A stretch of DNA of 64,000 nt. Source: Winslowiella toletana. GTDB lineage: Bacteria; Pseudomonadota; Gammaproteobacteria; Enterobacterales; Enterobacteriaceae. The stretch is taken from contig NZ_CP134152.1 of NCBI RefSeq assembly GCF_032164335.1, positions 4,154,001-4,218,000 on the forward strand, written 5' to 3'. A program made the position numbers and the translations under genes. Of the stretch, positions 34,743 to 55,158 are shown in pieces (position 1 is the first letter of the stretch; the number at the start of each line of letters is the position of its first letter). The notes beneath the pieces are model-generated. The model was given only the letters and a program-made list of their open reading frames with translations. It was not told where the DNA came from and did no database searches.

Positions 34743-34818
34743 GGCCCCTTAGCTCAGTGGTTAGAGCAGGCGACTCATAATCGCTTGGTCGCTGGTTCAA
34801 GTCCAGCAGGGGCCACCA
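34743..34818 (+). tRNA. ileX: tRNA-Ile2 (CAU anticodon, lysidine-modified)
   Basis: The 76-base tRNA has an encoded 3' CCA, an acceptor stem GGCCCCT pairing with AGGGGCC, a D-arm, an anticodon loop ACTCATAAT with CAT and a T-arm GGTTCAAGTCC. The sequence is that of the AUA-reading tRNA-Ile2 whose C34 is changed to lysidine by TilS; annotation programs often call it tRNA-Met. The position next to mug-rpoD is that of E. coli ileX. Its 3' half is the integration site of the neighbouring prophage. Confidence 0.96.
34773..34784 (+). other. attL core in the tRNA anticodon arm
   Basis: ACTCATAATCGC is shared exactly with 55109-55120 beyond the integrase gene. Similarity continues imperfectly from here through the tRNA 3' end and about 80 bp downstream flank. 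Coliphage 186 is known to integrate in the sister gene ileY, which encodes the same tRNA-Ile2, so the target fits the 186-like integrase. Confidence 0.8.
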
Positions 34819-34844
34819 AATTTTAGCTTTGAAATCATATAATT

Positions 34845-34870
34845 AAGCCACTCTTTCGAGTGGCTTTTTT
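34845..34870 (+). terminator. tRNA-Ile2 terminator
   Basis: AAGCCACT / AGTGGCTT stem with a short CTTTCG loop followed by six Ts lies 27 bp after the CCA end. Confidence 0.85.
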
Positions 34871-34935
34871 ATTGCCTCATTTCTGAGTGGCGATGCAATG
34901 GCGGTAGATTTTTTACCGCCACTTTCATCAGCACA

Positions 34936-34960
34936 TAAAAAAACCCGCACGCGGCGGGCA
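34936..34960 (-). terminator. Terminator of the prophage D-ogr late operon
   Basis: Read on the minus strand, CCCGC-CGCGT-GCGGG is followed by seven Ts, 16 bp after the ogr/B stop codon. Confidence 0.8.
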
Positions 34961-34975
34961 TTTGGCAGATATGGT

Positions 34976-35194
34976 TCAAAGACACAGTGGGCGCTGACCC
35001 GTTACAGCAGGGTGAGGAGGTGCCGGCTTTATGGCTCCCGGCGTGACAATAAAACGTTCAACCGTCTCCATTGTCATAAACGTGCAACTGCAGTTGATGT
35101 TCTGGCACTGGTGGTAACGCTCTTTGGTGTTTTCAGTTAAATAGCGGCTGGTTCGCGCATGTGCGGCATGATGACACTTCGGACAATGAAACAT
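34976..35194 (-). CDS. ogr: Late-gene transcription activator Ogr / 186 B
   Basis: The 72-residue protein from ATG 35194 has the length and layout of P2 Ogr and 186 B: MFHCPKCHHAAHARTSRYLT, then KERYHQCQNINCSCTF. The Cys-x2-Cys...Cys-x4-Cys pattern binds zinc. These proteins recruit host RNA polymerase alpha subunit to the late tail, head and lysis promoters. It is the last gene of the prophage late block next to attL, as in P2. The intact gene means the tail and lysis operons could still be switched on. Confidence 0.93.
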   Translation of the reverse strand: MFHCPKCHHAAHARTSRYLTENTKERYHQCQNINCSCTFMTMETVERFIVTPGAIKPAPPHPAVTGQRPLCL

Positions 35195-35259
35195 AACCCA
35201 CCTTTTATCCTCAAATTGTGAACTAGTAATAATCATAAATTCACTTTATGTGAATTTAT

Positions 35260-36429
35260 TTATTCACTTTCCGATTCATCGCTGTAATCCACATCAGCAA
35301 GCTTAACCTCAAGCTCTAAGCCGGTGGTGTAGCCGTTATTGTTGAGATTGTGAGTTACCTTGCTGATTAACCATAACTGATCGTCTATGACGCGCTTAAA
35401 GCCCGACACCCGCATCGGCGTTTCAGGAAATAAATCTGCACGCCCTAATGCCAGCGTAATAGAGAACTCAGCTGCGCCGCGCTGCAGCATGTCCCACTTG
35501 GCCTGAGCAGCACGCATCGCCTGTTCTTTTGAGGCATAGACCGTGGTCAGCGCCAGCACGTTATCCGCTTCACCGGCCATATATTCGTCCTCGCGTGCCT
35601 CCTGCTCTTTTTTAAGCGCTGTCTCTTTGCTGTCCGGCGTTGCTTTGGGATGCTGCAGCGCGCGCAGCTGCCCCTCCTTGGGTTTGCGCTTCAGCGTCAC
35701 TTTCTGCTTTTGCGGCTTCGGGTCTTCAGTGTGCAACCATTTAGCCGTTACGCCGGTATAAGCGCTACGGTCAGCGATGGCAAACTGATGACGGTCACCG
35801 TCGCTGCGGGTCAACGTCATTTGTGGGATCGCCGCACCACTGGCCGTTGTTGCACTACCCGCCCTGAGAAACAGTAGCTTTCCCGCCTTTACCGACACCG
35901 CCGCACCATTGCGGTTAGCCAGCCGGGTCAGGAACACCGCGTCTGACTCCTGCGACTGGTCAATATGCGGCACCGGAATTTTTTTCAGTGAATCCGCGAC
36001 GCTGGCCGTCAGCTTATTGCGCTTTGCGATGGTACTGACCAGATCGCCGAGGGTGGTGTCGTGCCATGATTCCTCACGCCGTGCATTAAGCGTTCCACGA
36101 AAGTCTGCGCTGCGCGCGCGTAGGGTCAGCGTATCCGGCGCGCCACGGTGCTCAATTTCATCGACCGTAAAGTCGCCCTTATTCAGCAGCGCCGAACCCT
36201 GCCAGCCCAGCCACAACGTCAGCACTGCCCCGCGCTGGGGTAGCTCGACTTTACCGTCGGTGTCGTCGAGCTCAATGTTGAGCTGGTCAGCCTCAAAGCC
36301 CCGGTTGTCGATCATGGTCAGAGAAATCAGCCGGTCATAAAAATTGCGGGTAATGTCCTGACTGTTAAGCGTCAGCATAAATGCCGGTGCGAGGCTGGCA
36401 CCGGCATCAATGGTAAGTCCCGTAATCAT
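35260..36429 (-). CDS. D: Tail/baseplate hub protein gpD
   Basis: The 389-residue product (P2 gpD 387) starts MITGLTIDAGASLAPAFML and has the phage late-control D (T4 gp27-like) pattern: LTMIDNRGFEADQLNIELDD, RSADFRGTLNARREESWHD, and TPMRVSGFKRVID near the end. gpD forms the hub at the base of the contractile tail. Its start overlaps the end of U by four bases. The reading frame is undamaged. Confidence 0.94.
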   Translation of the reverse strand: MITGLTIDAGASLAPAFMLTLNSQDITRNFYDRLISLTMIDNRGFEADQLNIELDDTDGKVELPQRGAVLTLWLGWQGSALLNKGDFTVDEIEHRGAPDTLTLRARSADFRGTLNARREESWHDTTLGDLVSTIAKRNKLTASVADSLKKIPVPHIDQSQESDAVFLTRLANRNGAAVSVKAGKLLFLRAGSATTASGAAIPQMTLTRSDGDRHQFAIADRSAYTGVTAKWLHTEDPKPQKQKVTLKRKPKEGQLRALQHPKATPDSKETALKKEQEAREDEYMAGEADNVLALTTVYASKEQAMRAAQAKWDMLQRGAAEFSITLALGRADLFPETPMRVSGFKRVIDDQLWLISKVTHNLNNNGYTTGLELEVKLADVDYSDESESE

Positions 36430-36911
36430 GCGGTCAGCCCTCCAGCCGAGCCCTGTAGATTACCGACCAAACTGGCGGCAGAGTCGATAAGCTCACCGGC
36501 CTGCTTATTCAGGTCGCCAAACATCGCCGTCAGCGATTCATCGACCCGTTTCAGAGAGAGTGTGAAATCAATCTTTCTGGCCGCGCCGTCGCTGAAAAAC
36601 TCGGTATGCGTGGTCGATACCTTATCGACGATATACATTCCGAGAATATTGCCGGTACCCTCAATCAACGGCCACGCCCTGCCCTCGTTGGCCATCAGCT
36701 CAACAGCCAGCAAGGAGATACGCCCGCCGGTAATGGCGGGATAAAGCGTTCCGGCAAGCTGGCGTGAGGTTTCCCCTTCCCCGAGAAACTGATACGCAGG
36801 CGGTTTACCGATCCGGTCATTAGACGCCCAGCGATAATCCTTCGAGTGCTGCATCGACTGATAAGGCAGGGTGCGGCGTTCAAACACAAACATTCCAAGT
36901 GCAAGCATCAT
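36426..36911 (-). CDS. U: Tail protein gpU
   Basis: 161 residues, nearly the P2 gpU length (159). It has the family pattern LGMFVFERRTLPYQSMQ, GRISLLAVELMANEGRAWPLIEGTG, and FSDGAARKIDFTLSLKRVDE. gpU is a tail protein needed for assembly of the P2 contractile tail. A second ATG one codon in is an equally possible start. It is sandwiched between T and D in the FI-FII-E-T-U-D operon. Confidence 0.93.
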   Translation of the reverse strand: MMLALGMFVFERRTLPYQSMQHSKDYRWASNDRIGKPPAYQFLGEGETSRQLAGTLYPAITGGRISLLAVELMANEGRAWPLIEGTGNILGMYIVDKVSTTHTEFFSDGAARKIDFTLSLKRVDESLTAMFGDLNKQAGELIDSAASLVGNLQGSAGGLTA

Positions 36912-36925
36912 TATTTTATCCTCCC

Positions 36926-39367
36926 TCAGTCATGACTCATGTTGGCACGCGCACGCGCACGCTTCTCGCGATCAATCTGCTCGACGGTGTCGCGAAGCTG
37001 ACGGTCAAGCTGATGCCCCGGTGCAATACCGCCCGAAAGCGTGATGTTGTATTCGCTTTTGCTCTGGTCGACGTAAGAGCGCCCTGCCGGTGCGGTAACT
37101 GGCTGGTAAGCCTGATAGCCACCATAGCTGCTGGTCGCCGGAATGTAAGAATTCCCCTGCGTGGCGGCATTGGTTTTGATGGCGGTCTGGTCGAGAATGT
37201 CCGACTCTTTGCTGATAATGCCGAGCTTTTCCAGAAGCCAGTCGACGCCGCTGCGCAGCTTGTTAAATACGTCAAGCGGTGCTGTCAGTGCTGAGGCCAG
37301 CGCCTGACCGAATATGACGCCGACGTTTTTACAACTGTCGAGCGTTTCCTGCGTCGTCTTGATCGGCGCAATCAGGTCTTTAAAACACTGCCAGACGCCA
37401 CCTAATTTCTCACCAAGCTCGTCAAAGATCGGAGTCAGCGGAGTGAACATCTCCCCGACCGGCGCAAAGGCGCTTATGACCCCCTCAATCACCCCTGAGA
37501 AAAATGCGCTGATGGGCTCCCAATATTTACGGATCAGCAACGCGCCAGCCACAATCACCAAGCCTATGGCCACAATCGGCCAGGTAATCGCGCCGAGCGC
37601 GGTAACAATAGCGCTACCTACCACGGTAAACGCGGTGCCAAGAAAGCCAGCAGCAGTAATGATGACATTTATCCCACTAATGATCGGCCACGCAATCAGA
37701 CCAATAACGCCAATCACACCGATGAAAGCCAGCGCCCCGGTAACTACTGTAAAAAGGGTTTTCGTCAGCTCTGGATTGGCTTTTGTCCATGTTCGTAAAG
37801 TATCCACCCAGCCTGTGGCTGATGTGGTTAACTTACGCAGTGCTGAGTCTTCTTTTTCAAATACCTCAATTTGCAAATTTTCCGAGGCTGACTGCAGTTT
37901 TTTCAAATCACCGTCGAGGTTATTCGTCTGGATTTTTGCGATCCGTGCGGTAGTACCTTTAGAGTCACCAATCTGATTGCGCTTCTCCGCCAGCTGGCCA
38001 TTACCCGCAGCAGCAACCAGCTTCACTGCGCCTGCCATCGCCTCTTCACCGAAAATAACTTTCAGATATTCAGCCTGCTGCGCGCTACTGAGCTGGTTTT
38101 TATCAAATGAGCGGTGGATATCACTGAGGATTTTCTCAACCGGCAGCATATTTCCGTTATTATCTTGCGTGGTGACTGACAGCTCTTTAAGGGCGTCAGA
38201 AGCCTGCCCCTGTGGAGCCTGCAGCCTGCTGAAAATGGCGCTGGCACTCGTTCCCGCCATCGAGCCCTTGATATCGTTATCAGCCAGTATGCCGATCACG
38301 GCGGCAGTATCTTCAATGCTGGCACCTGCGGCCTCTGCTGTGGGCGCGACGGACTTCATCGCCTCCGTAAACTCGATCAGACCGGTTTTGGACGACGTAA
38401 AACCTTCCGTCATCACATCCGTTACGCGTTCAACTTCCGTCGTGGACAGATTAAACGCAGACTGGATACTGGTGATAATATCGGCGGCTTCGGCAGTATC
38501 AACCTCCGCAGCCAGGCTGAGATTAATGGTCGATCCCGTGGCAGCCAGTACGGCATCAGCGTCGTATCCGGAACGCGCCAGCGTCGTCTGAGTAAGCGCC
38601 ACATTACCTGGTGAAACCCCGGTCTTCGCGCCGATATCCCGCGCCTGTTGCCTGATAGCCGCAAGTTTTTCATCGCTGTTACTCAGATCGAGAATCGCCT
38701 GCGTGCCGGACATCTGTTTATCAAAGTCGATACCGGGAGCAATAAACTGCGATGAGGCATTCAAGCCTTTCATCGCGATGCCAACACCGGCCATACCGGC
38801 ATTCCGCGCGCCAGAAGCCAGCTTTTGGCCGGTTTCGTAACGGGCTTTGACCTGGCTCAACCTCGCCTGTTGTGCTCTGACACGCGCCAGCGCCTCACGC
38901 TGTCGGTTAAGCTGCGCCGTCGTCTCGTTGATGGAGGCTTTCAGCCGACGCTGATCGGCAGACAGGCTGCGGGTATTAATACCGGCCTGCATCAGTCCGG
39001 TACGCTGGCGCTGAACCGAGATTCTCAGTTCGTTGTATTGGGTCTGCAGCTCAGAGGCTGCACGCTTTGCCGCTTCGAGTGCCTGCGCCTGTGCGCGGGT
39101 AGGATTGGTGGCGTTTTTAAACCGCACGGCCAGCTCACCCGCTTCGCGCTTCGCCCTGTCGAGCGCCTGACCGGTCACGGCCAACTGCGCACTTGTCTCA
39201 CGGAAGCCGTTGATTTTCGACGCCTGATCATTCAGGTCGCGCAGCCCCTTTTGTGTGTCGCGAATGTCACCCGACAGGGTTTTACTCGCGGCCTGGATGG
39301 ACTTCAGCGGTCGGGTCGCCTGGTCGACCGCTTTTAGCAAAATCTCAAGCCTCAGGTTATTACTCAT
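36926..39367 (-). CDS. T: Tail tape measure protein gpT
   Basis: 813 residues, matching P2 gpT (815). The N-terminal 170 residues are a coiled coil (MSNNLRLEILLKAVDQATRPLKS, many Gln/Ala/Arg heptads), then the conserved phage tape-measure region around SQFIAPGIDFDKQMSGTQAI and DNDIKGSMAGTSASAIFSRL. Hydrophobic transmembrane-like segments lie at about 540-610. The tape-measure length sets tail length, so an almost P2-sized tail is predicted. The ATG overlaps the end of E' by eight bases. Confidence 0.95.
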   Translation of the reverse strand: MSNNLRLEILLKAVDQATRPLKSIQAASKTLSGDIRDTQKGLRDLNDQASKINGFRETSAQLAVTGQALDRAKREAGELAVRFKNATNPTRAQAQALEAAKRAASELQTQYNELRISVQRQRTGLMQAGINTRSLSADQRRLKASINETTAQLNRQREALARVRAQQARLSQVKARYETGQKLASGARNAGMAGVGIAMKGLNASSQFIAPGIDFDKQMSGTQAILDLSNSDEKLAAIRQQARDIGAKTGVSPGNVALTQTTLARSGYDADAVLAATGSTINLSLAAEVDTAEAADIITSIQSAFNLSTTEVERVTDVMTEGFTSSKTGLIEFTEAMKSVAPTAEAAGASIEDTAAVIGILADNDIKGSMAGTSASAIFSRLQAPQGQASDALKELSVTTQDNNGNMLPVEKILSDIHRSFDKNQLSSAQQAEYLKVIFGEEAMAGAVKLVAAAGNGQLAEKRNQIGDSKGTTARIAKIQTNNLDGDLKKLQSASENLQIEVFEKEDSALRKLTTSATGWVDTLRTWTKANPELTKTLFTVVTGALAFIGVIGVIGLIAWPIISGINVIITAAGFLGTAFTVVGSAIVTALGAITWPIVAIGLVIVAGALLIRKYWEPISAFFSGVIEGVISAFAPVGEMFTPLTPIFDELGEKLGGVWQCFKDLIAPIKTTQETLDSCKNVGVIFGQALASALTAPLDVFNKLRSGVDWLLEKLGIISKESDILDQTAIKTNAATQGNSYIPATSSYGGYQAYQPVTAPAGRSYVDQSKSEYNITLSGGIAPGHQLDRQLRDTVEQIDREKRARARANMSHD

Positions 39368-39479: not shown

Positions 39480-39511
39480 CAGGTCATCAGTCGACAGGTC
39501 GGACGGGAAAT

Positions 39512-39910: not shown

Positions 39911-40429
39911 TTACAGACCGATTGCGCGGCGATGCTGTTCCAGACGATCGACGCCGTTCACCTTCTCAACCATGTTAACGGTATCGATTTCGATGATGTC
40001 GCTACCATCAATCGAGAGACGGTAATAGCTGCAAACGGTCGACAGTTTGGTCGAGCTGTTTTCACCCTGCTTATTCTCGCCGCCGTCGATTTCTTTATGA
40101 CGGCCACGCATGACCACCTCGACCGCGACGATATCGCCGGTGTCGTCGCGCTGATAGGAACCAGCGAAACGCAGCGGCACGGCATCTGCACCCGGCGCGG
40201 CGTACTGCGCCCACAGCGCCACATCGGGCAGGCCACCTACAGACCACTCGACGGTTAACGCATCATCGTCGAGGCCGAGGTCAATCGCGGCCGCGCCATT
40301 CATGCCGCCGCCGCGATAGTTTTCGAGCTTGCGCGTCAGCTTCGGCAGCGTCACGGATTCAACAACGCCCATATAGCTGAGGCCGTCATTGAACATATTC
40401 AGATATTTAAGTTTGCGGGGTAGTGCCAT
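39911..40429 (-). CDS. FII: Major tail tube protein gpFII
   Basis: 172 residues, identical in length to P2 FII. It begins MALPRKLKYLNMFNDGLSYMG and has KLTRKLENYRGGGMNGA and YYRLSIDGSDIIEIDTVNMV of the phage tail tube family. It forms the inner tube of the contractile tail. It lies 15 bp downstream of the sheath gene. Confidence 0.95.
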   Translation of the reverse strand: MALPRKLKYLNMFNDGLSYMGVVESVTLPKLTRKLENYRGGGMNGAAAIDLGLDDDALTVEWSVGGLPDVALWAQYAAPGADAVPLRFAGSYQRDDTGDIVAVEVVMRGRHKEIDGGENKQGENSSTKLSTVCSYYRLSIDGSDIIEIDTVNMVEKVNGVDRLEQHRRAIGL

Positions 40430-40444: not shown

Positions 40445-41623
40445 TTAGCTATTGACCGATTCGGCCAGATTCACCAGATACTTATCGGTGATACGCTGGC
40501 GCAGGGTCAGGCTTTCCAGTGGGGGAACCGGCGTATAGTCGTAGTCGATATACAGTTTCCCGGCCTTGAGAGTTTCCTTATCGTTCGATTCCTCATCGAA
40601 CCAGCATTCACCGTCCAGGATGTAGCCGTTAGATTTCAGCTCACGGAACTTGGCGTTAATGCCGTCAACAATGTCACGGATAAGCGAGGCGGTGATGGGC
40701 TTATCGACCGCCCACATGTGCGCCTCGGCCATCGTGTCGGCCAGCACCTGCGCGGTGCGGGTGTAATTCTCAAACAGGAAAAGCGGATCATCAGAGCAGG
40801 TGCGGTTACCCCAGAAACGGAAACCATCTTTGCGCACCAGTGTCGTAACCCCGGCCTCGTTGAGCAGGTCGGCATCGGTGCCGGATGCCTGCAAATCCCA
40901 GAATACTGAAGCGCTGATGCCGGTAACGCCCTGCACGCCAACGTTAGACAGGGTTTTGTGCCAGCCGACAGTCTGGTCAATGTAAGCCCGCAGGCCGAGC
41001 GCGCGTGCAGTGGCATAGGCCGTCGCGGAAGCGTTCCCGGTGGTGTCCCATGCCAGAAAATCAGGCCAGATGACCATCAGCTCGCGCTGGCTGAAGTTTT
41101 CGCGATAGGCCATTGCTTCGGAAATGGTCTTGCAATTCCATGCGCTGACATAACCAAATGCGCGCAGGCTGATACAGACCGACGCCAGCGCGGTCGCGAC
41201 CTCCTGCGAATCGAGACCCGGCACGCCGAGAATGCGCGGCTTAACGCCGGTAACCGCTTCGGCAGTCAACAGCGCCTTGATTCCGGTGTATTTACCGTTT
41301 TCATCGGTGCCACCGATGATGTTGGAAATGGTCTGCGCTTCGGCATCTTCTCCGGTACCTTCGGCAACGCGCACAACGACGGTGACGGGTTTTGACTGGT
41401 CGGCAATAGCCTGCAGGGATGCGGCCAGCGTGCCTTTTTTACCGGCTTTCGCAATGGCGCTCTGCACATTGGTAATCAGTACCGGCTGGTTGAGGGGAAA
41501 TGTCGCGGCATCTGCATCGCTGGCCGTACAGACCATGCCGATGATTGCAGTCGAGACAGTGGATATGACGCGGGTGCCGTCGTTAATTTCAAGCACCTGT
41601 ACGCCGTGGTGAAAATCACTCAT
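40445..41623 (-). CDS. FI: Major tail sheath protein gpFI
   Basis: 392 residues (P2 396). The sheath signature is clear: [20 protein letters not shown], then the conserved [20 protein letters not shown] block and the C-terminal [21 protein letters not shown]. It forms the contractile sheath. It is the first gene of the FI-FII-E-T-U-D operon, preceded by 130 bp that hold the terminator of the upstream operon and should hold an Ogr-dependent promoter. Confidence 0.95.
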
Positions 41624-41748: not shown

Positions 41749-41753
41749 TTTAC

Positions 41754-42353
41754 TTATTCCGGTTTTACCGGCCATTCAATATCCGGTGCAGTGGAGGCAT
41801 CGACCGTCTTCAGTGCCTGAATGTATTTCATCCACTTAATCAGGCTGGCTTTATCCTCATCGCTGATGATGCCGAGTTGCAGCTCGGTCTGCCACAGGCT
41901 GATAGTGTTTTGCGCTTCGGCCAGTAATGCGGCTTTTTTCTGTTCAGCTTCCATTACATTACCGCGTTTCTGCGCATCCTCATCCGTGACCCACTCGCTA
42001 CCGTTCCAGCGGTCATAAGGCGTCAGCGGTTCGATGGTGGTCACACCGGCAGGATAATCACCAAGTTCAGAAATTTCGACAGGCTGGCCGGTTTCCGTGT
42101 CATAAGCTATTTTTCCCCGGTGGTCTTCGATATATTCCCATCCATCAAGACTGGCCTTACGACAAATGGCAAAATTATTCTTTTCATCGATTGGCGCATC
42201 GGAGCAAGAATTGGCAGGAATCCCCACTCCCACAGCCAGAAATTCAACTGATGACGTCAGATATTCGCGCGTTTCACCGTTGTAGTTATAAACAGTAATA
42301 TCACCGGTCTTTGTCGCAATCCCGTTTTTATTCAGCGTTGCTTTCTCCATCAT
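41754..42353 (-). CDS. G: Tail fibre assembly protein (Tfa/gpG-like)
   Basis: 199 residues with the Caudo_TAP pattern: central LTPYDRWNGSEWVTDEDAQ, a helical segment EAEQKKAALLAEAQNTISLW, then LGIISDEDKASLIKWMKYIQ and a C-terminal PDIEWPVKPE. Such chaperones fold or attach the tail-fibre tip. It overlaps the H stop codon (ATGATG), so it is coupled to the fibre gene it serves. The N-terminal third is unlike P2 G and may match this fibre specifically. Confidence 0.9.
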   Translation of the reverse strand: MMEKATLNKNGIATKTGDITVYNYNGETREYLTSSVEFLAVGVGIPANSCSDAPIDEKNNFAICRKASLDGWEYIEDHRGKIAYDTETGQPVEISELGDYPAGVTTIEPLTPYDRWNGSEWVTDEDAQKRGNVMEAEQKKAALLAEAQNTISLWQTELQLGIISDEDKASLIKWMKYIQALKTVDASTAPDIEWPVKPE

Positions 42354-46856: not shown

Positions 46857-47124
46857 TAAGTAACCTCGTAATCATCTGCTCACGACGGCTGGCTTCCTCA
46901 CTGGACTTTGCGAGCTGTTCGCGCAGCGCCATCTGCGCGGATTCATTACGTCGGGCAAGCTTGCCGGCAACACTGAGCTGATTTTCCAGCATGCTAATCG
47001 TCGTCTTTTGCTGGCTGGCGACGCGGTTTGCCGTCTCAACAGCACGGGACAGATTGCCGTTCTCATTGCGCAGCCACAGGAGGCCGAGCGCGGCCAGTAC
47101 TGACAGTACGACGAACAGCCTCAT
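46711..47124 (-). CDS. lysB: Spanin inner-membrane subunit LysB (Rz-like)
   Basis: 137 residues: an N-terminal anchor MRLFVVLSVLAALGLLWLRN followed by a periplasmic coiled coil (NLSRAVETANRVASQQKTTI, REQLAKSSEEASRREQMITR). This is the Rz-type i-spanin. It overlaps the endolysin stop by four bases and contains the start of lysC in another frame. Confidence 0.9.
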   Translation of the reverse strand: MRLFVVLSVLAALGLLWLRNENGNLSRAVETANRVASQQKTTISMLENQLSVAGKLARRNESAQMALREQLAKSSEEASRREQMITRLLNENDVFRRWYHAPLPDAVRRLHARTACVSAGDCNQRMPEGEPLSDAGK

Positions 47125-47621: not shown

Positions 47622-47823
47622 TGAACTCACGAGCATTGCCTTTGCCGACGCCGGTTTCGGTCAGACAGCGAAAGGTTTTGCGCCGGTACCAGAAATTCAC
47701 CGCAGCCGTAAAAATGGCGCACAGGCTCCCCACATAAAGCGCAAGCCGTTCGGGAGTCTGCGCCCCGAAATACGCCAGCAGCACCGCCAGCCAGTAGGTG
47801 ACAAAGGTGCTGAACCTTTCCAT
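47614..47823 (-). CDS. Y: Holin (P2 Y position, class II type)
   Basis: 69 residues with two membrane segments (FVTYWLAVLLAYFGAQ and LYVGSLCAIFTAAVNFWY) followed by basic RRKTFR. This is the layout of class II/HP1-family phage holins. An ATG at 47835 that overlaps the X stop would add four residues. It sits directly upstream of the endolysin gene, as expected for the lysis timer. Confidence 0.85.
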   Translation of the reverse strand: MERFSTFVTYWLAVLLAYFGAQTPERLALYVGSLCAIFTAAVNFWYRRKTFRCLTETGVGKGNAREFNG

Positions 47824-47825
47824 TG

Positions 47826-48029
47826 TCAGTCCCATAGATTCAGGGTCTCCGCTGTGGGTGATGTTTCAACGTCAGGCAGGTCAATTGCCGCGCCATGCGG
47901 CAGAATGACGCCCAACTCACACAGGCCAGGGTTAGCCTGCAGCACCGCCTCAACCACGCCCTCAGTGCGCCCGTAATACCGGAAGCAAAGCGCGTCGAGG
48001 ATGTCGCCCTGCATCGCGTAAACTTTCAT
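47826..48029 (-). CDS. X: Tail protein gpX
   Basis: 67 residues from ATG 48029, exactly the P2 gpX length. MKVYAMQGDILDALCFRYYG and LPHGAAIDLPDV are diagnostic, a LysM-like tail protein family. The start overlaps the gpL stop (TGATG). Upstream in-frame codons belong to L in another frame. Confidence 0.93.
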   Translation of the reverse strand: MKVYAMQGDILDALCFRYYGRTEGVVEAVLQANPGLCELGVILPHGAAIDLPDVETSPTAETLNLWD

Positions 48030-48523
48030 CAGCGTTGCCCCCTGAAACAGCGCGGTTTGTCCTGCAGCCGCGAGACGAACCAGCGCATATCCCGCCACAG
48101 GTCATCGATGGTGGTTTCAACGCTGCGCGCTTTTTTGTCACCCTTACCGTTGGCCCCAACGCCGCGATAGTGTTCATACAGATTGGCGGTCGCCAACGCC
48201 GTCGCGGCGCTCAGATAGTGGAAAACGTGCTCGCTCTCGCCGTCGATTTCCTCAGCAGGCACGTCGGCCAGTTGCCTGAGCCCTGCGGCAATCTGGCGCG
48301 CCCGGTAGTCGTAAAGCTCTGCATTAATTTCCGCCATGCCGGTCTTGATGGCATTGCGCAGGCGAGCATCTGACACCGTCTGCCCAAGCCGCATCAGCTC
48401 GCGCACCCGCTTCGGATCCACATCAGGAAAAAAGAAGGTGTTTTTAATCACCGTGTCGCCCGCCTCCGGCGCGGGGATCACCACGCCCGGTACATTGGGC
48501 TGATTAAGTATCACTGTCGTCAT
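48029..48523 (-). CDS. L: Head completion/stabilisation protein gpL
   Basis: 164 residues (P2 169), with FFFPDVDPKRVRELMRLGQT and TIDDLWRDMRWFVSRLQDKP typical of gpL. In P2 it seals the filled capsid. It is the only complete head-related gene left in this prophage; everything expected to its right (M, N, O, P, Q) is deleted or decayed. Its ATG overlaps a TGA that appears to be the end of M. Confidence 0.9.
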   Translation of the reverse strand: MTTVILNQPNVPGVVIPAPEAGDTVIKNTFFFPDVDPKRVRELMRLGQTVSDARLRNAIKTGMAEINAELYDYRARQIAAGLRQLADVPAEEIDGESEHVFHYLSAATALATANLYEHYRGVGANGKGDKKARSVETTIDDLWRDMRWFVSRLQDKPRCFRGQR

Positions 48524-48648
48524 GACAATCTCATTAGGTTGGGTGGTGGACGCCGCTCGCCGTCAGGGTCTGCGTCTGCTTTGACCCGCGTGCTGCCCGA
48601 TTTCAGGTCTGCGGTCTGCCAGCAGCTCATTACTGCCATCGCCTCTCT
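48520..48648 (-). pseudogene. Possible 3' remnant of the small terminase gene M
   Basis: A 42-codon open frame (ending ERRPPPNLMRLS) ends in TGA overlapping the L start codon, the coupling expected for M-L in P2-like phages. No similarity to P2 gpM can be asserted from memory, so the identity rests on position and the ATGA overlap. It is closed upstream by TAA at 48649-48651. Confidence 0.35.
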
Positions 48649-48854
48649 TTAGTGCGTTGCGGCTGGCTGTTTTCTTCAATCTTGCCGGCCAGCACCTCAT
48701 GCATCGGTTGGTGTTACCGGTTACCGCCAGTTTCCAGACTCAGGACATCCTCAGCCACCCGTCACGACTGGATGACTCGTAACACAACAGCACCTTAGCC
48801 AGTCACTGACGGCTATTAAAAAGCGTTGCTCAGAATCCATCACGACGAGGCATC

Positions 48855-49198
48855 ATGACGATCTCCGCCAATACAACTTTGTCGTGAAGTTAATAACCTG
48901 TTTATGCGCGAGTTTTTTAATACCAGACGTCGGTTTTCTATTCGGGGAGTTGCAGTGCAGCATGATCGACGGGATGGAAGAATGGGAAGGCTTTGCCAGG
49001 TTTGGCTGGCGCCCGGAGTGGGTTAGCTAAGACCCGTCACACACCGGCGACAGCGCCAGATGCGTCGTGCTTGCGCCGCTGGGGGCCGGAGCAAGTTCCG
49101 CATGCTGGAGCGTCACCAGCGGGGAGGGTATGGACTTTGCCGCGCAGGCAGAGGGGATCAGCAGCGGGCGGAATAACATCAAAGAGAGCGAAAGATAA
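48855..49198 (+). pseudogene. P: Decayed remnant of terminase large subunit gene P
   Basis: The plus strand is the direction expected for P, divergent from O-N-M-L. An ATG at 48855 reads MTISANTTLS then stop, resembling gpP N-termini. From about 48891 a fragment reads NLFMREF, and after a frame change EEWEGFARFGWRPEW, stop, DPSHTGDSARCVVLAP. Another change gives SKFRMLERHQ, and then GMDFAAQAEGI returns to the earlier frame. These blocks match, in order, the conserved middle of P2-type terminase ATPase/nuclease (NLFM, YDPSHTGDSA, KFRxLERHQ, GMDFAAQAE). About 350 N-terminal residues, the C-terminal part and all of Q are missing. Confidence 0.78.
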
Positions 49199-49299: not shown

Positions 49300-49740
49300 C
49301 TAACGCCAGCTCTCATCTTCCCAAACTTCCTGAAGAATATTATCCAACGACTCACGGTCTGAATCTTCATCAAACCCCACCAGCTCAACGCCGGTCATGG
49401 AGCCTTTTTTGACGGTGACACACGTAAATGGAAAAACAGACTGTATTCGCCTGGTCAATTCGCATTGAAAAGCGTCAATTACCGGCTGACCTATCTTATG
49501 ATCTTTATCCAGCGTGATATTTACCCTAACTTCGCCCGCTCTTTTTAATCGTTCTTCGACAGGCGTTGCAGAGAAAACCACTGAAAAATCATTGTTTTTC
49601 ATCAAGTTCCCTCTTGCTATCTCCGCTATCAAATTCAATGCAATTTCACGGTCTCTTTCCTGACAAGTACCTTCAGCCGTCAGACGCGCAATCATTTCGA
49701 CCCGCTCAATCATAACGTGCTTGCTTAACTCTCTGTCCAC
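49300..49740 (-). CDS. tum: SOS-controlled antirepressor Tum (186-like, DinI-like C-terminal domain)
   Basis: From GTG 49740 (four bases after GGAGG) the product has 146 residues. MDRELSKHVMIERVEMIARL and the rest look like coliphage 186 Tum, which binds CI and frees the lytic promoter after DNA damage. The C-terminal half from about residue 72 (RVNITLDKDHKIGQPVIDAF ... KKGSMTGVELVGF) is a DinI-like domain. A near-consensus LexA box lies 19 bp upstream. An ATG-initiated longer reading would run through the LexA box and is rejected. The frame is undamaged, so SOS induction of the element looks possible. Confidence 0.88.
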   Translation of the reverse strand: MDRELSKHVMIERVEMIARLTAEGTCQERDREIALNLIAEIARGNLMKNNDFSVVFSATPVEERLKRAGEVRVNITLDKDHKIGQPVIDAFQCELTRRIQSVFPFTCVTVKKGSMTGVELVGFDEDSDRESLDNILQEVWEDESWR

Positions 49741-49758
49741 ACAACCTCCATCACGAGA

Positions 49759-49778
49759 TACTGTATAAACATACAGTA
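49759..49778 (-). promoter_or_regulatory. LexA box controlling tum
   Basis: TACTGTATAAACATACAGTA matches the consensus TACTGTATATATATACAGTA at 18 of 20 positions and is a near-perfect palindrome. It lies between the tum start codon and gene A. Confidence 0.95.
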
Positions 49779-49877
49779 GCACTGGTATCAATTTGTGTGA
49801 AGAAAAATTCGTGTGAAATACGATGTATGTACATGATATCGATGGCTATAAGCTGCTTTCTTTTAAGAGTTAAACCT

Positions 49878-52070
49878 CTAAGACCGCAACAAGGCTGAGG
49901 TTTTCATCCCCTTTGTCGGATGTAATGGTGCTGCGAAAAATATTTCGCCGTGTTGCGAACCGGTGCACCATTTCCCGTTAAAGCAGCTTTTACCGCCCCT
50001 GATCAGATGCAGGGCTTCGCCCCGGCTGATGACTATGCCGGTGGTCTGATTTATCTCATCGATACTTCTCACTATCGCGGCGTTTTGATCATCCGTTCCA
50101 TGGATAAATTTTCGCCGGATAATCGTCTTTTGGTCTCTGAGTCGATTGATTAACTGCCGCCTTTCACGTTGATTCAGAGGCTTTGATAAATCCAGCGCCG
50201 GTGGAGCACGTTCGCTTCCCGTACAGTTATTGACAGAACTCCGAGAGGGCGCAGCAGCGCCCTTAACGTCAACGGCTAAATCAACGGCATGCTTCGGCAC
50301 AATTTTCCACTGCGTAAGCCTGGTTAAAATCGGAGTGCCTGCACCAACGGTAGAATCGTACACGCCACGAATGCAGATCATTTCCTCGCCATACTGATTA
50401 AACCCGGTGCGTGATTCATACAGCGTGCGCACCTGCAAATCATCGCGACGGACAAACGGACCACCTTGCGCATTAACATAACCGGCCCAGTCACCGGCGT
50501 CGGCGGCGTCGTGGACAGCGGCAAACTCGACGCTCAGGCCGTGCGCCGTCTCGGTATCAGCCAGACGACGCAGCTCACGGTAGACCGTTACCGGCGCACC
50601 GCCGATAAATTGAAACTGACGAATGTGCCAGCGCGCCGCCCATGCTGAAACGGCAGGAGCTGTCTCTTTCAGCAGCTCACCGCTTTCGTTATCGCTTTCG
50701 CCATCAAGAGCATAACCGTCGATATTTTTTGAGATGTATTTGGCAATATAGCCGGTAGCACTGCCCTTCTCCGGGTCAATGGCCTCGGCGTGGAAGCGTG
50801 CTTTTTGGGCTTTATCGCTTTTCAGCTCAACGCGATCTTCCTCCCACGCATAATCTCGGATGATAAGGCGCACGCGCTCGACATCTTCCGGCAGCATAAA
50901 CATAAGCATGTGCCAGTGAGGGGTTCCGTCGTGATGGGGTTCGGCGACGCGGATACCGAAAATGCGGATCGCTTCCCGGTGCAGCTTGGCCCGGATGCGC
51001 GCCCACATCCCGGTGAGATAGCCTTGGGTGTCCGCCGGGCTGGCTCCGTTCCATTTGCTGTTGCGGTAGCCCGCTTTAGTGGTGGCATGATATTTAGACG
51101 GCGCGGTCAGGGTGTAAAACTCTCCGACGTAACCGAGCTGATTGCAGATATTTTCAAACCCACGAATACGGGTCATCAGCTCGCAGCGGCGTATCGCAGG
51201 ATTAGCGACTGAGCCGTCGTATTTTTCAATCAGGCTGATGCGGTTGCCGTCTTCGTCTTCGAGATCCAGACCTTTAAGAAATTCGCGCGTGCGGCGCTTC
51301 TGCTCGCGCCAGTCTGTCACGCATTTTTTGCTCGCGTAGGCGTGCTTTTTCTTACTGACGTTGCCGACAGCGATTTGCAGATGTTCGCACCATGCAGCCG
51401 CAACACGTCGCAGGCGGCCACGCCACCAAACCTCATTAAACATGCGGGTGACTGCCGGTGCGATTTCATCTTCGGCGACATACTTCTTTTTCACCCGCTC
51501 CCAGTGCGGAGGAATGATGTTGAATTGCAAGGAAATTAAGCCGGCGCGCAGGTACCAGCTGTACAGCGTTTTGAGCTCGCTTAATCCGTTATCATCAATG
51601 TCGGCCAGCTCACCACGAATAAAATTAGCGATATCAGCGGCCAGCAGGTCAATATCGGCGCGCGACATATCCGGAAGCCGGTTATATCTGGCGACCATAT
51701 TAACCATGCGTGACGCCAGATATTGCATAAGCTGAGTATCGAAATGACCACCGAAAACAGCGGCTGATACGTTGCTGTTGATACCGGCGCATTGATATTT
51801 TTTCGCAACCCGTTCAAGACGCGGCAATGCCTTTTTGCAAAAGCTGATTAAAAAAGCATTGGCGCGTCGACTGCCCAGATTTTGCTCCAGCACCTCTGCG
51901 GTGCGATAAACCTCAAAACGCACGCACTCGGGCTGGAGAGAAAACATCTTTCTCGCATGCAGCAACGCCGCAAACATACGGTCGCGGCGGTGCTGTTGCT
52001 CATAGGTAAGATACGGGCTGGCGATTGCCGACCGCGGAGCATTCCACGGATAAGCGAATTGAACAGCCAA
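49878..52070 (-). CDS. A: Phage replication initiator gpA (HUH endonuclease)
   Basis: 730 residues in the range of P2/186 A. HUH motif: HHDGTPHWHMLMFM near residue 385. The two catalytic tyrosines lie in YIAKYISKNIDGY (Tyr about 441 and 445, spaced by three), as in rolling-circle initiators of the A family. gpA nicks its own origin inside the A gene and covalently attaches. It is followed on the same strand by tum and preceded by a run of small early genes, with the first only one base away. Confidence 0.95.
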   Translation of the reverse strand: MAVQFAYPWNAPRSAIASPYLTYEQQHRRDRMFAALLHARKMFSLQPECVRFEVYRTAEVLEQNLGSRRANAFLISFCKKALPRLERVAKKYQCAGINSNVSAAVFGGHFDTQLMQYLASRMVNMVARYNRLPDMSRADIDLLAADIANFIRGELADIDDNGLSELKTLYSWYLRAGLISLQFNIIPPHWERVKKKYVAEDEIAPAVTRMFNEVWWRGRLRRVAAAWCEHLQIAVGNVSKKKHAYASKKCVTDWREQKRRTREFLKGLDLEDEDGNRISLIEKYDGSVANPAIRRCELMTRIRGFENICNQLGYVGEFYTLTAPSKYHATTKAGYRNSKWNGASPADTQGYLTGMWARIRAKLHREAIRIFGIRVAEPHHDGTPHWHMLMFMLPEDVERVRLIIRDYAWEEDRVELKSDKAQKARFHAEAIDPEKGSATGYIAKYISKNIDGYALDGESDNESGELLKETAPAVSAWAARWHIRQFQFIGGAPVTVYRELRRLADTETAHGLSVEFAAVHDAADAGDWAGYVNAQGGPFVRRDDLQVRTLYESRTGFNQYGEEMICIRGVYDSTVGAGTPILTRLTQWKIVPKHAVDLAVDVKGAAAPSRSSVNNCTGSERAPPALDLSKPLNQRERRQLINRLRDQKTIIRRKFIHGTDDQNAAIVRSIDEINQTTGIVISRGEALHLIRGGKSCFNGKWCTGSQHGEIFFAAPLHPTKGMKTSALLRS

Positions 52071-52071
52071 T

Positions 52072-52293
52072 TCATCCCCTCCGATAGTGTTTTAATTTGA
52101 GTTCGGCGATTTGCTGGCAGGTGACACAAAAACACACGCCCGGAATCGCAACGCGGCGAGCTTCCGGGATGGGTGCATCACATTCTTCGCAGTGGAAACG
52201 AAACGGCGCCGCGATACGGCTACGTGCATTGCTGATATGGCGCTCACGGTCTTCCTGCTCGCGCTGTTGTGCTAAATCCATTGCGTCGGCCAT
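52072..52293 (-). CDS. TraR/DksA-type C4 zinc-finger protein
   Basis: 73 residues: a helical N-terminus MADAMDLAQQREQEDRERHI and the zinc finger CEECDAPIPEARR...CFCVTCQ. Such proteins in P2-like phages resemble TraR, which binds the secondary channel of RNA polymerase. It shares one base with the preceding gene and ends one base before gene A, so it belongs to the early operon. Confidence 0.88.
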   Translation of the reverse strand: MADAMDLAQQREQEDRERHISNARSRIAAPFRFHCEECDAPIPEARRVAIPGVCFCVTCQQIAELKLKHYRRG

Positions 52294-52520
52294 CAGTGCA
52301 GCTCCTGTAATTCGTTCTCAAAACGAGAAGCTTCGCGGCGCAGCAGTTCAGCGGCGTCTTTACCGCTCATGCCCTCTTCGGTGATATGGACAGCCAGCGC
52401 CTCAAGACGGATTGAAACTGCGCGCGCGCGGTCTTTACGCTCTTCGTTTTTTGCGTCTGTCAGCAATAGGGCCATTGCATCTCTATCGGTGATAAAACGA
52501 TGAGATTCGGTATTACGCAT
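52293..52520 (-). CDS. DUF2732 family early protein
   Basis: 75 residues, MRNTESHRFITDRDAMALLL then KNEERKDRARAVSIRLEALA and GMSGKDAAELLRRE. This is a conserved small early protein of P2/186-like phages without known function. It is coupled to the zinc-finger gene downstream. Confidence 0.82.
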   Translation of the reverse strand: MRNTESHRFITDRDAMALLLTDAKNEERKDRARAVSIRLEALAVHITEEGMSGKDAAELLRREASRFENELQELH

Positions 52521-52587
52521 AATTAACTCTCCTGATTTCAGGCAATAAAATGCCCGGCGGGTTTACGCCATTAATTTTCTGTCTGGA

Positions 52588-52926
52588 TTAGTTCGGCATG
52601 GTTAGCCGTTTAGGAAATAAGCTCACTATTGCGCGAAAATGATTCATCGCTGTTATCAGCGCCTTTTTCTCGCCAGTAGTCAGCTCGTTTAATTCGAGCT
52701 GATGACGAGCCGCCGGTATTTTTGCCAGAAAGAAGATAGCGGCCAACGCTCGGTTATTTTCCTCAAATTGCGAGTCGTGTTTATCGCGCATATCATCGAC
52801 AAAACGTTCGACCTCTTTCCAGCCAGCTCCCCAATATCTGGCGCGCAGCTCGGCCACATGATTGAGACCGACCAGACGCTCACCCGCTTTTAGCGGAACG
52901 GTTAACGAGACGGCTTCAATAGCCAT
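52588..52926 (-). CDS. Early phage protein, DUF5347-like
   Basis: 112 residues from ATG 52926, which follows a strong GGGGGGAG ribosome-binding site; upstream codons are not used. The sequence (ERLVGLNHVAELRARYWG, FVDDMRDKHDSQFEENNRAL) resembles a small early family of P2-like prophages that I believe is DUF5347. It has no established function. It stands where 186 carries fil/dhr after cII; there is no cII-like gene here. Confidence 0.7.
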   Translation of the reverse strand: MAIEAVSLTVPLKAGERLVGLNHVAELRARYWGAGWKEVERFVDDMRDKHDSQFEENNRALAAIFFLAKIPAARHQLELNELTTGEKKALITAMNHFRAIVSLFPKRLTMPN

Positions 52927-53028
52927 AACTCCCCCCTGCTTTGGTAGAGAGGCCAGCCAGTGAGCAACCTGAATGCCTGGCAAGCTGAAAATCAAACATG
53001 TCGCCCCATGAAATTCACATAAAGTGAA

Positions 53029-53292
53029 TTACGCACCAATGACGAGCTGAAAGCGGGAATGACCCAACGCCTTACGCAACTGATCTTCTTTCCAGCGCGC
53101 GTAATAGATGCGAATAGGCCCGCCTGCTTTCTTGCAGCCTTTGCGGATAATACGAGGTTCGATAGGTACACGCGGGTTATCGCCGGTGGTCCAGCGGTAA
53201 GCGGTACGTTCAGAAACACCCTCAAGCTCTGCGAACTGTTGCAGAGTAACGATCGGTGCAGGCACTTTGATGATTGCGATTTCAGAAGCCAT
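53029..53292 (-). CDS. apl: Apl excisionase / early repressor
   Basis: 87 residues from ATG 53292 (MASEIAIIKVPAPIVTLQQF). It looks like coliphage 186 Apl, with a MerR/Xis-like winged helix (FAELEGVSERTAYRWTTGDN) and a basic second half (IRKGCKKAGGPIRIYYARW). Apl both aids excision by binding at att and represses the early and lysogenic promoters. A TTG 11 codons upstream is a less likely start. It is divergent from cI. Confidence 0.9.
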   Translation of the reverse strand: MASEIAIIKVPAPIVTLQQFAELEGVSERTAYRWTTGDNPRVPIEPRIIRKGCKKAGGPIRIYYARWKEDQLRKALGHSRFQLVIGA

Positions 53293-53379
53293 GTTGCATG
53301 ATTCCCATTTTGACAATGTTTGCAATCAACGGCCTCTGTTTGCCAACTTCCGCCAGTGATTGTCCTAATTAGCAATGAT

Positions 53380-53403
53380 ACTAATACCCAAATGAGTATT
53401 AGT
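53380..53403. promoter_or_regulatory. Operator palindrome between apl and cI
   Basis: ACTAATAC and its exact complement GTATTAGT are separated by eight bases (centre near 53391), in the 132-bp divergent apl-cI gap. A further half-like AATACTC lies just downstream at 53406-53412. This is the expected place for CI operators over the early promoter. Confidence 0.75.
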
Positions 53404-53424
53404 AAATACTCAAAGGAATAAATA

Positions 53425-54000
53425 TTGATCTTTGATACTCAGGTGAATAATGACGAGTTACTGGACAGAATCTGTCAAGTATATGGTTTCAAACAAAAAA
53501 TCCAGTTAGCTCGCCACTTCAATATTGCAGCCAGCTCCCTGCAAAATCGCTACGCGCGAGGAACGGTTTCTTATGACTTCGCGGTGCAATGTGCTTTAGA
53601 AACTGGCGCGAGCCTGCTATGGCTGCTGACCGGGCAGGGTTCCCAATACGACGGGAAACCGGCACCAACGGATCCTAAAACAATAGAATCATTCACGCTG
53701 AGTGATGGAAAGCTCGAAAAAAACTCACCATTGAGTATCGATGCGAGTTTTTTCAGTAAGCAAATGTCAAAAGGTATTGCTGTCCGGGCCGATGGAAAGC
53801 TTAACTTTATCGAACAAGATGCCTCACTTTCTGATGGCCTTTGGCTGGTTGATATTGAGGGCGCTACCAGCCTCAAAGAATTGACGTTACTACCTGGCAA
53901 GAAACTTCACGTTGCGGGCGGTAAAGTACCGTTTGAATGTGGGATAGATGAGATAAAAACGATTGGCCGTGTAGTGGGTATATACAGCGAGGTTAATTGA
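53425..54000 (+). CDS. cI: Prophage repressor CI (186 type)
   Basis: 191 residues with a TTG start seven bases after AAAGGA. N-terminal helix-turn-helix: LLDRICQVYGFKQKIQLARH, NIAASSLQNRYARGTVSYDF. The C-terminal oligomerisation domain (ADGKLNFIEQDASLSDGLWL, LHVAGGKVPFECGIDEIKTI) is close to coliphage 186 CI. That protein lacks LexA-type self-cleavage and is inactivated by Tum instead, which fits the tum gene here. The stop TGA overlaps the int ATG. Confidence 0.92.
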   Translation: MIFDTQVNNDELLDRICQVYGFKQKIQLARHFNIAASSLQNRYARGTVSYDFAVQCALETGASLLWLLTGQGSQYDGKPAPTDPKTIESFTLSDGKLEKNSPLSIDASFFSKQMSKGIAVRADGKLNFIEQDASLSDGLWLVDIEGATSLKELTLLPGKKLHVAGGKVPFECGIDEIKTIGRVVGIYSEVN

Positions 54001-55034
54001 TGGCGGTCCGTAAAAATCCGGCTGGAGGCTGGATTTGTGAGCTTTACCTTAACGGGGCAAAAGGCAAACGCATCAGAAAGAAATTCGCCACCAAAGGCGA
54101 GGCGTTGGCCTTTGAACAGTACACCGTTCATAATCCGTGGCAGGAAGAAAAACAAGACCGGCGCACGTTAAAAGAGCTGGTTGACGCATGGTACAGCGCA
54201 CACGGCATTACCCTGAAAGACGGACTAAAACGTCAGTTAGCGATGCACCATGCTTTTGAGTGTATGGGCGAACCGCTTGCGCGTGATTTCGATGCGCAGA
54301 TGTTTTCCCGCTACCGGGAAAAGCGGTTAAAGGGTGAATATGCCCGTTCAAACAGGGTAAAAGAAGTATCGCCCCGCACGCTTAACCTTGAGCTGGCCTA
54401 CTTTCGCGCGGTGTTTAATGAGCTAAACCGTCTCGGAGAGTGGAAAGGCGAAAATCCACTGAAAAATATGCGCCCTTTCCGCACGGAAGAGATGGAAATG
54501 GCCTGGCTAACTCAGGATCAGATTGCTTTGCTGCTCGGTGAATGCAAACGGCACCACCATCCAGATTTAGAAGCCGTGGTAAGAATCTGTCTCGCCACTG
54601 GCGCTCGCTGGTCTGAGGCCGAGAGCCTGAAAAAAAGCCAGCTCGCGAAATATAAAATCACCTATACCAACACGAAAGGCAGAAAAAACCGCACCGTCCC
54701 AATCAGCCAAGCGCTTTATGAATCCCTGCCTGATGATAAAAAAGGTCGGTTATTCAGTGATTGTTATGGCGCGTTCCGGTCAGCTCTGGAAAGAACAGAT
54801 ATCGAGTTACCGGCGGGGCAACTGACCCACGTTTTGCGCCACACTTTCGCCAGCCACTTTATGATGAATGGCGGTAATATTTTGGTGTTGCAGCGCGTGC
54901 TTGGCCATACAGATATAAAAATGACGATGCGATATGCGCACTTTGCTCCAGACCATCTGGAGGATGCTGTTAAGTTCAATCCACTGGCGGTAAGTGGCGG
55001 TAAAGTGGCGACAGAAATGGCGGATAATGGGTAA
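54000..55034 (+). CDS. int: Phage integrase, tyrosine recombinase
   Basis: 344 residues. N-terminal arm-binding segment MAVRKNPAGGWICELYLNGA, core-binding domain (about 55-160), and catalytic residues Arg203 (ATGARWSEAE), Lys226, His277-x-x-Arg280 (THVLRHTF), His303 (LGHTD) and Tyr312. All are present, so the enzyme looks active. It is coupled to cI through an ATGA-type overlap and lies 75 bp from attR, as in 186. Confidence 0.95.
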   Translation: MAVRKNPAGGWICELYLNGAKGKRIRKKFATKGEALAFEQYTVHNPWQEEKQDRRTLKELVDAWYSAHGITLKDGLKRQLAMHHAFECMGEPLARDFDAQMFSRYREKRLKGEYARSNRVKEVSPRTLNLELAYFRAVFNELNRLGEWKGENPLKNMRPFRTEEMEMAWLTQDQIALLLGECKRHHHPDLEAVVRICLATGARWSEAESLKKSQLAKYKITYTNTKGRKNRTVPISQALYESLPDDKKGRLFSDCYGAFRSALERTDIELPAGQLTHVLRHTFASHFMMNGGNILVLQRVLGHTDIKMTMRYAHFAPDHLEDAVKFNPLAVSGGKVATEMADNG

Positions 55035-55108
55035 TCACTGGCAAACAGTGGCAATCTAAGTCAATGACTTATAGAGTAAAGTATTGTTTTTCCATTGTTC
55101 TTGTAGGA

Positions 55109-55158
55109 ACTCATAATCGCCTGCTCGCTGTTTCAAGTTCAGCAGAAGGACCACCAAA
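55109..55158 (+). other. attR with degenerate tRNA-Ile2 3' half
   Basis: The core ACTCATAATCGC (55109-55120) is identical to that in the tRNA gene. The following bases resemble the tRNA 3' half (TTTCAAGTTCAGCAG ... CCACCA) with several substitutions and one inserted base. Similarity continues in the next 75 bases to the downstream flank of the tRNA gene, including CATTTCTGAGT. This is the displaced host copy, free of selection since integration. The rest of 55035-55363 holds no gene I can support. Confidence 0.75.

What the first reader, a model, noticed from the sequence alone, without database searches (positions are those of the whole stretch)
34773..55120. Headless, SOS-inducible P2/186-type prophage: candidate R-type tailocin locus
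Seen: genes for a complete contractile tail (sheath, tube, tape measure, spike, baseplate, fibre, E/E' frameshift), an Ogr/B activator, holin, SAR endolysin, spanins, CI, Apl, Tum with LexA box and integrase have undamaged frames at P2/186-like lengths. Portal, scaffold, capsid and both terminase genes are missing, leaving only a decayed shred of P. Established: some R-type bacteriocins (for example xenorhabdicin-type) descend from P2-like prophages and are SOS-released headless tails. Inference: this locus may release killing tail particles rather than phage. The alternative is an ordinary decaying prophage caught soon after head-gene loss; the truncated S gene argues for caution.
Basis: partly seen in the sequence, partly recalled or inferred. 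Interest (0 to 1): 0.75.

Follow-up and report, generated by a model that had tools for sequence, protein, structure and literature searches.

The report
Headless prophage remade into a tailocin
A bacterial chromosome carries a virus that has lost its head and DNA-packaging genes but keeps an intact, SOS-controlled contractile tail and lysis kit, so it most likely makes tail-only particles that kill related bacteria, and it looks caught part-way through that change.

Summary
Window 34773-55145 is a 186/EtG-type prophage in the 3' part of a tRNA-Met gene. The tail genes (all but S), lysis genes, Ogr/B, CI, Tum with LexA box, gene A and int have open frames. Portal, terminase, scaffold and capsid genes, cos, orf97, cII and fil are gone or shreds. 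Searches found no P2 capsid or phage portal elsewhere in the genome.

Comparison favours an R-type tailocin over plain decay. (1) The head region eroded through at least five deletions, yet the Ogr-dependent promoter pV survives and now stands before L-X-lysis-tail; several other headless loci have pV fused to L or X. (2) The S loss supports the tailocin reading: S was not found in 44 of 44 headless loci that keep X or K, but was found in 72 of 72 complete ones (2 diverged); the proven tailocin BceTMilo also lacks S. (3) Head remnants and the still-open head gene L evolve near neutrally, while ten tail genes stayed constrained (modelled dN/dS about 0.39 since head loss) with no broken frame.

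The tree nests it among complete phages: an origin separate from the genus's older tailocins. New member of a known kind; particle release and killing are untested.

The parts
34743..34818 (+). tRNA-Met (CAT), attachment gene
   Evidence: ARAGORN and Rfam RF00005
34773..34809 (.). attL copy of the 37-nt repeat
   Evidence: direct repeat D1
34976..35236 (-). B / Ogr late-gene activator
   Evidence: PHROG 603; NCBIfam NF007241 above cut-off
35260..36429 (-). tail gene D
   Evidence: PHROG 52; open frame
36426..36911 (-). tail gene U
   Evidence: PHROG 76; open frame
36926..39367 (-). T, tape measure, 813 aa (812 aa in phage 186 by its annotated span)
   Evidence: PHROG 28, TIGR01760
39360..39847 (-). 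E (39512-39847) and E' (-1 frame continuation to 39360)
   Evidence: PHROG 103; frames read
39911..40429 (-). FII, tail tube
   Evidence: PHROG 55 (labelled head closure there), annotated as P2 FII-like in EtG
40445..41623 (-). FI, tail sheath
   Evidence: PHROG 23; only PF04984 hit in the genome
41697..41714 (-). pJ Ogr/B box TGT-N12-CCA, 91 bp before FI
41754..42353 (-). G, tail fibre assembly
   Evidence: PHROG 105
42350..43396 (-). H, tail fibre
   Evidence: PHROG 327; PF12571 and PF07484
43393..44001 (-). I, baseplate
   Evidence: PHROG 48, PF09684
43994..44902 (-). J, baseplate
   Evidence: PHROGs 4226 and 6
44909..45256 (-). W, baseplate wedge
   Evidence: PHROG 43
45253..45888 (-). V, spike
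   Evidence: PF18715 and PF04717
45940..46135 (-). remnant of S (head-docking adaptor), two pieces with a large internal deletion
46136..46603 (-). R, tail terminator
   Evidence: PHROG 65
46566..47124 (-). spanin pair: outer (46566-46856) and inner (46711-47124)
   Evidence: PHROGs 952 and 89
47121..47636 (-). K, endolysin
   Evidence: PHROG 7
47614..47835 (-). Y, holin
   Evidence: PHROG 20
47826..48029 (-). X, baseplate hub / tail protein
   Evidence: PHROG 46; open frame
48029..48523 (-). L, head-completion gene, open frame but near-neutral substitution pattern
   Evidence: PF05926; N:S 20:8 against 18:42 in complete phages
48524..48692 (-). remnants of M (48524-48599) and O (48608-48692)
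48706..48882 (-). retained O/P divergent promoter region with late promoter pV; Ogr/B box TGTGTTACGAGTCATCCA at 48787-48770
   Evidence: alignment to annotated 186 pV; box; HMM E 9.3e-21
48890..49163 (+). remnant of P (terminase large subunit) with several small indels
49300..49791 (-). Tum antirepressor (longest frame; conserved part ends near 49740)
   Evidence: PHROG 189; 86% identical to 186 Tum
49759..49778 (.). LexA box, identical to the annotated 186 site
   Evidence: alignment with feature
49878..52070 (-). A, replication initiation protein
   Evidence: PHROG 91
52072..52995 (-). three small early genes (DksA-like, DUF2732-like, DUF5347-like)
   Evidence: PHROGs 54, 128, 602; EtG names
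53029..53325 (-). Apl
   Evidence: EtG Apl matches over 100% of its length; no Pfam hit
53425..54000 (+). CI repressor
   Evidence: PF07022 and PF16452
53997..55034 (+). integrase
   Evidence: PHROG 1
55109..55145 (.). attR copy of the repeat
   Evidence: direct repeat D1

Best explanation
The locus is an R-type tailocin derived from a 186/EtG-like prophage, at an early-to-middle stage of domestication. Proposed working (inferred from 186 biology): DNA damage cleaves LexA and frees the Tum promoter; Tum inactivates CI; B/Ogr is made and drives pV and pJ; pV, whose head genes were deleted, now transcribes L-X-holin-endolysin-spanins-R-V-W-J-I-H-G, and pJ transcribes FI-FII-E/E'-T-U-D. Headless contractile tails assemble, capped by R without the head-docking protein S, and the cell lyses and releases them to depolarise and kill cells that carry the fibre's receptor. 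Shown here: gene content, open frames, promoter and operator retention, absence of head genes from the genome, selection contrast, convergence with other headless loci. Inferred: induction, assembly, release, killing.
For: Tail and lysis frames open. Head genes and cos gone by at least five deletions, with pV kept (HMM E 9.3e-21). pV found 17-26 bp before L or X in four other headless loci at E 2e-6 or better or 0.004 (L130, L164, L046, L136; L143 weaker). S not found in 44 of 44 headless loci keeping X or K, found in 72 of 72 complete loci (70 at 60% or more of its length, 2 at 30-59%). cII absent in 4 of 4 headless loci with a 186-type Apl, present in EtG, 186 and the lysis-less L160. N:S changes on the window's lineage: remnants 52:23, ten tail genes 133:148, L 20:8; post-loss tail dN/dS 0.39 (0.28-0.67), medians 0.32-0.41 and upper bounds at most 0.68 over kappa 1-4. 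No frame-breaking indel in 10,749 bp of tail genes against 6 (counted by hand) in 562 aligned remnant sites, 115 expected at that rate. LexA box kept. Proven tailocin BceTMilo has the same losses and keeps Ogr.
Against: No induction or killing data. L, A, int and Apl are still open, so domestication is incomplete. The pV core is no better conserved than its flanks (54/67 against 92/109 identical to 186, p 0.54), so base-level selection on it is not shown. Tail N:S is higher than in complete phages as a set (133:148 against 262:656), which could mean partial relaxation; but one complete phage outside the reference clade, L144, shows the same ratio (143:147), so that excess is not specific. Lysis genes are less constrained (54:40). 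T, G and H were left out of the selection test because they are mosaic.
Confidence: 0.8

Rival explanations
1. An ordinary decaying prophage that happened to lose its head genes and has not yet lost its tail genes.
For: Head genes are shreds, S is broken, other early genes are missing; L160 shows that plain deletion prophages exist; in three other species of the genus and one of the family, cI/lysis/B remnants without a tail occur, so such loci do decay.
Against: Remnants have been near-neutral for a modelled 0.39-1.00 of the branch while tail genes gained no broken frame and kept dN/dS below 0.7. The losses match those of other headless loci (S, cII, head) rather than falling at random; L160, the one headless locus in the count that lost X and K, kept part of S and cII.
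Confidence: 0.14
2. A still mobile element that borrows heads or packaging from a helper phage (tail-donating satellite).
For: Integrase, Apl and replication gene A are open, and the first 12 nt of the att repeats are identical.
Against: cos, both terminase subunits and S (head docking) are gone, and no P2 capsid or portal was found in this genome.
Confidence: 0.03
3. The locus is kept for CI immunity or SOS lysis, and the tail genes ride along.
For: CI, Tum and the lysis cassette are kept; other species keep cI, tum or lysis genes and B with no tail (L166, L171, L174, L179).
Against: Ten tail genes are more constrained than the remnants (133:148 or 146:168 against 52:23) and no more relaxed than the lysis genes.
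Confidence: 0.03

Closest known systems
BceTMilo, P2/KL3-like R-type tailocin of Burkholderia cenocepacia (PMC5411513, section 7 read)
   Same: P2-type tail and lysis genes, Ogr and a CI-like repressor kept, head genes and S missing, RecA-dependent induction there and a LexA/Tum route here.
   Different: There the break lies between X and L; here L is still open, and shreds of M, O and P plus pV remain. BceTMilo particles and killing are proven; these are not.
Xenorhabdicin (Xenorhabdus; passages of PMC13280938; loci L052-L067, L082)
   Same: P2-type headless locus; in 14 of 14 loci a TGT-N12-ACA box stands 105-106 bp before X; S not found.
   Different: Own lineage in the tree; old and genus-wide by that paper; R not found by tblastn there.
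Pantailocin (Pantoea; passages of PMC12873547; the original paper is not held)
   Same: Described as an R-type tailocin island beside rpoD; here rpoD (31976-33817) is 1 kb from the att site.
   Different: sulP on the other side was not looked for here; sequence relation untested because no pantailocin sequence was compared.
Dickeya P2D1 and Pectobacterium carotovoricin (passages only)
   Same: P2-related headless tail loci that kill relatives.
   Different: Other lineages; not compared by sequence here.
Erwinia phage EtG and phage 186 (L004, L005)
   Same: Nearest annotated complete phages; same order, integrase 94% identical to both.
   Different: They have heads, cos, S, cII and fil.

Membership tests
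R-type tailocin | complete contractile tail and baseplate gene set with open frames | tested here: met
   S is the one tail-region gene missing, as in BceTMilo
R-type tailocin | no capsid, portal, terminase or packaging site | tested here: met
R-type tailocin | lysis genes for release | tested here: met
   holin, endolysin and spanins
R-type tailocin | SOS control | tested here: met
   LexA box identical to 186 and an open Tum frame; sequence only, induction not tested
R-type tailocin | tail genes kept by selection after head loss | tested here: met
   with the L144 control against over-reading the excess over phages
R-type tailocin | headless tails released that kill relatives | not testable with these tools
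   needs induction, microscopy and killing assays
Eganvirus (functional 186-like phage) | head genes, terminase and cos | tested here: not met
Phage satellite (P4 or PICI kind) | packaging site or redirecting genes for a helper's head | tested here: inconclusive
   no cos and no terminase; no dedicated search for redirecting genes

The most novel reading that the evidence does not exclude
186-like prophages are turned into tailocins again and again by one route: deletions remove the head operon but spare its Ogr-dependent promoter pV, which becomes wired to L or X, the lysis genes and the tail; S and cII are lost in parallel. This locus is a part-way snapshot, with pV, shreds of M, O and P, and a drifting but still open L. 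The headless label needs 11 changes on the tree of 78 loci, at least 9 forced by starred branches (gains or losses, and recombination can inflate it).
Probability: 0.5. Interest if true: 0.65.

Novelty: new member of a known kind. Interest (0 to 1): 0.5.

Why it matters
Tailocins are held to come from prophages by loss of head genes, but intermediates are seldom described. A locus with dated, near-neutral head remnants beside constrained tail genes lets one separate domestication from decay by sequence, gives a rule of thumb for spotting other tailocins (no head, no S, pV fused to L or X, lysis kept), and points to a testable antibacterial particle in a probably plant-associated genus.

Tried and rejected
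A single clean deletion of the head genes: rejected, at least five junctions. Trans-complementing head genes: rejected for P2-type capsid and portal (other capsid folds than PF05125 and PF03864 were not searched). First remnant count 73:24: replaced by 52:23, because MAFFT misplaced the short M and S pieces. First S tally listed four 'headless' loci with S (L148, L117, L069, L216); the stricter tally keeps 119 of 151 loci and drops those four: L148 and L117 are cut inside L and Y, L069 reaches only 2.6 kb above S, and L216 has J at 36% and stops in R. That rule was set after seeing them. Constraint on the pV core: not found. The pV HMM also hit L122 (E 0.00095) on a contig where neither X nor L was found, and did not hit the Xenorhabdus, Photorhabdus, compact Erwinia-type or L178 loci at E 0.01 or better. 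The strict box TGT-N12-[AC]CA is missing upstream of O in 16 of 73 loci with O and before X or L in L046, L130, L164, L143 and L178; no shuffle control was run for it. An exact-pattern test of a junction gave 0 matches because the pattern was mistyped and was not used.
Full report
What is there. The element spans 34773-55145, between copies of a 37-nt repeat, in the 3' part of a complete tRNA-Met. Its nearest annotated phages are Erwinia phage EtG (70% of a 23-kb query covered at 86.9%) and phage 186 (63% at 84.1%). The host genus is not named by any tool. The best plasmid match of one 20-kb piece of the second contig is Erwinia rhapontici (40% covered, 94.2%); two other pieces match best to Serratia and to Enterobacter/Citrobacter plasmids. 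I take the genus as probably Erwinia, by inference.

Gene content. Tail, lysis and control genes are listed under parts. All 23 frames tested are open. Against EtG and 186 the map is collinear with gaps. In the head region five junctions separate pieces of M, O, O again, the O/P intergenic region and P from the Tum side; the last one swallows the rest of P, the second terminase gene, portal, cos and orf97. S has a net loss of about 250 bp. The stretch with cII and fil is gone, as are EtG's DUF5405 and exonuclease genes; the last two may vary among phages and are not used as evidence.

Promoters. The surviving O/P region holds 186's pV with its B box: the window reads TGT-N12-CCA there and again before FI. 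An HMM from 56 distinct pV regions of 72 complete loci finds the window at E 9.3e-21, 184 bp before L, and L130 and L164 (5.7e-8, 6.3e-8; 22 bp before L), L046 (9.4e-7; 17 bp before X), L136 (2.2e-6; 26 bp before X), and more weakly L143 (0.0041), L179 (0.0049) and L050 (0.01), the last three 22-54 bp before X. In Serratia (5 of 5), Xenorhabdus (14 of 14) and Photorhabdus (11 of 11) headless loci a strict box lies 102-116 bp before X; these are few lineages, not 30 independent cases. Against: the pV core of the window is not better conserved than its flanks. So retention is shown by position and motif, not by base-level constraint.

S as a marker. Of 151 loci held in one orientation, 119 could be judged. 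Complete loci: 72, S found in 72 (70 at 60% or more of its length, 2 Photorhabdus at 30-59%). Headless loci keeping X or K: 44, the window among them, S found in none at 30% or more. Two part-head loci have S; the one headless locus without X and K (L160) has part of it. The rows dropped between the first and the final tally are told under Tried and rejected. The BceTMilo paper says that S is the only tail gene missing there and that in P2 it appears to dock the tail to the head, which explains the pattern.

Selection. Changes unique to the window's lineage were sorted into N and S. Remnants of P, O, M and S: 52:23. Ten tail genes: 133:148, or 146:168 with X and another polarisation. L: 20:8 against 18:42 in complete phages, p 0.0004; lysis 54:40 against 56:70, p 0.08. 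Neutral expectation is 2.4-3.3 over kappa 1-4. So L, though open, drifts like the remnants, while tail genes do not. A two-phase model puts head loss so that 0.76 (0.39-1.00) of the branch lies after it, and post-loss tail dN/dS at 0.39 (0.28-0.67), little changed by kappa or by leaving out S. Frame-breaking indels: 6 in 562 remnant sites (hand count), none in 10,749 bp of tail genes, 115 expected at the remnant rate. Limits: unique changes stand in for true polarisation; the complete phage L144 shows a tail ratio of 143:147, so the window's excess over other phages is not proof of relaxation; L130 and L164 have L at 45:29 and 44:29 and lysis near 3.

Origin. In a quick tree of 78 loci on V-W-J-I the window is sister to a complete phage contig (L085, 95) inside a set of 18 rows, 16 of them complete (99). 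The headless label needs 11 changes, at least 9 forced. Five compact tailocin-like loci in sister species (L167, L168, L169, L176, L215) form a distant clade; they have cI, tum, X, K, Rz, R, tail and B but no int, A, L or S matches. Of five sister-species tRNA-Met flanks fetched, three show no prophage gene over 16 kb or more, one contig ends 0.7 kb on, and one has weak V and R remnants. So this copy is a later arrival.

Literature. Tailocins as headless prophage derivatives, with many origins, are established (passages of PMC12090994, and PMC10598620). The library gave 0 papers for tailocin with Eganvirus, 0 for tailocin with late promoter and 1 for tailocin with Ogr. Two Erwinia prophage surveys hold no 'tailocin' in their main text. 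Most subscription papers are not held, so this is no proof of absence.

Verdict. An R-type tailocin locus is the best reading (0.8). It is a new member of a known kind; the value lies in the part-way state and in the repeated retention of pV.

Noticed in passing
window 55835-63991 (-), continuing past the window (L229 136-19899): A giant autotransporter-like frame: 2718 aa within the window with an autochaperone domain, and at least 6587 codons open when read on the genome.
   Followed up: partly
L166, L171, L174 (same genus), L179 (same family): Remnants that keep some of cI, tum, lysis gene K and B but lack the tail, which may be dead tailocins or a kept SOS-lysis module.
   Followed up: no
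L167, L168, L169, L176, L215: Compact headless tail loci in sister species, with cI-tum-X-K-Rz-R-tail-B order and no int or A match.
   Followed up: partly
L130 and L164 (viral contigs): pV lies 22 bp before L with O, N and M missing, and the tail fibre region differs between two otherwise similar contigs.
   Followed up: partly
L160 (viral contig): A prophage that lost head, X, K and R but kept cII, fil and part of S: a contrast case of plain deletion.
   Followed up: partly
window 31976-34818: rpoD, a uracil-DNA-glycosylase family gene and tRNA-Met stand beside the element; pantailocin islands are also reported next to rpoD.
   Followed up: partly
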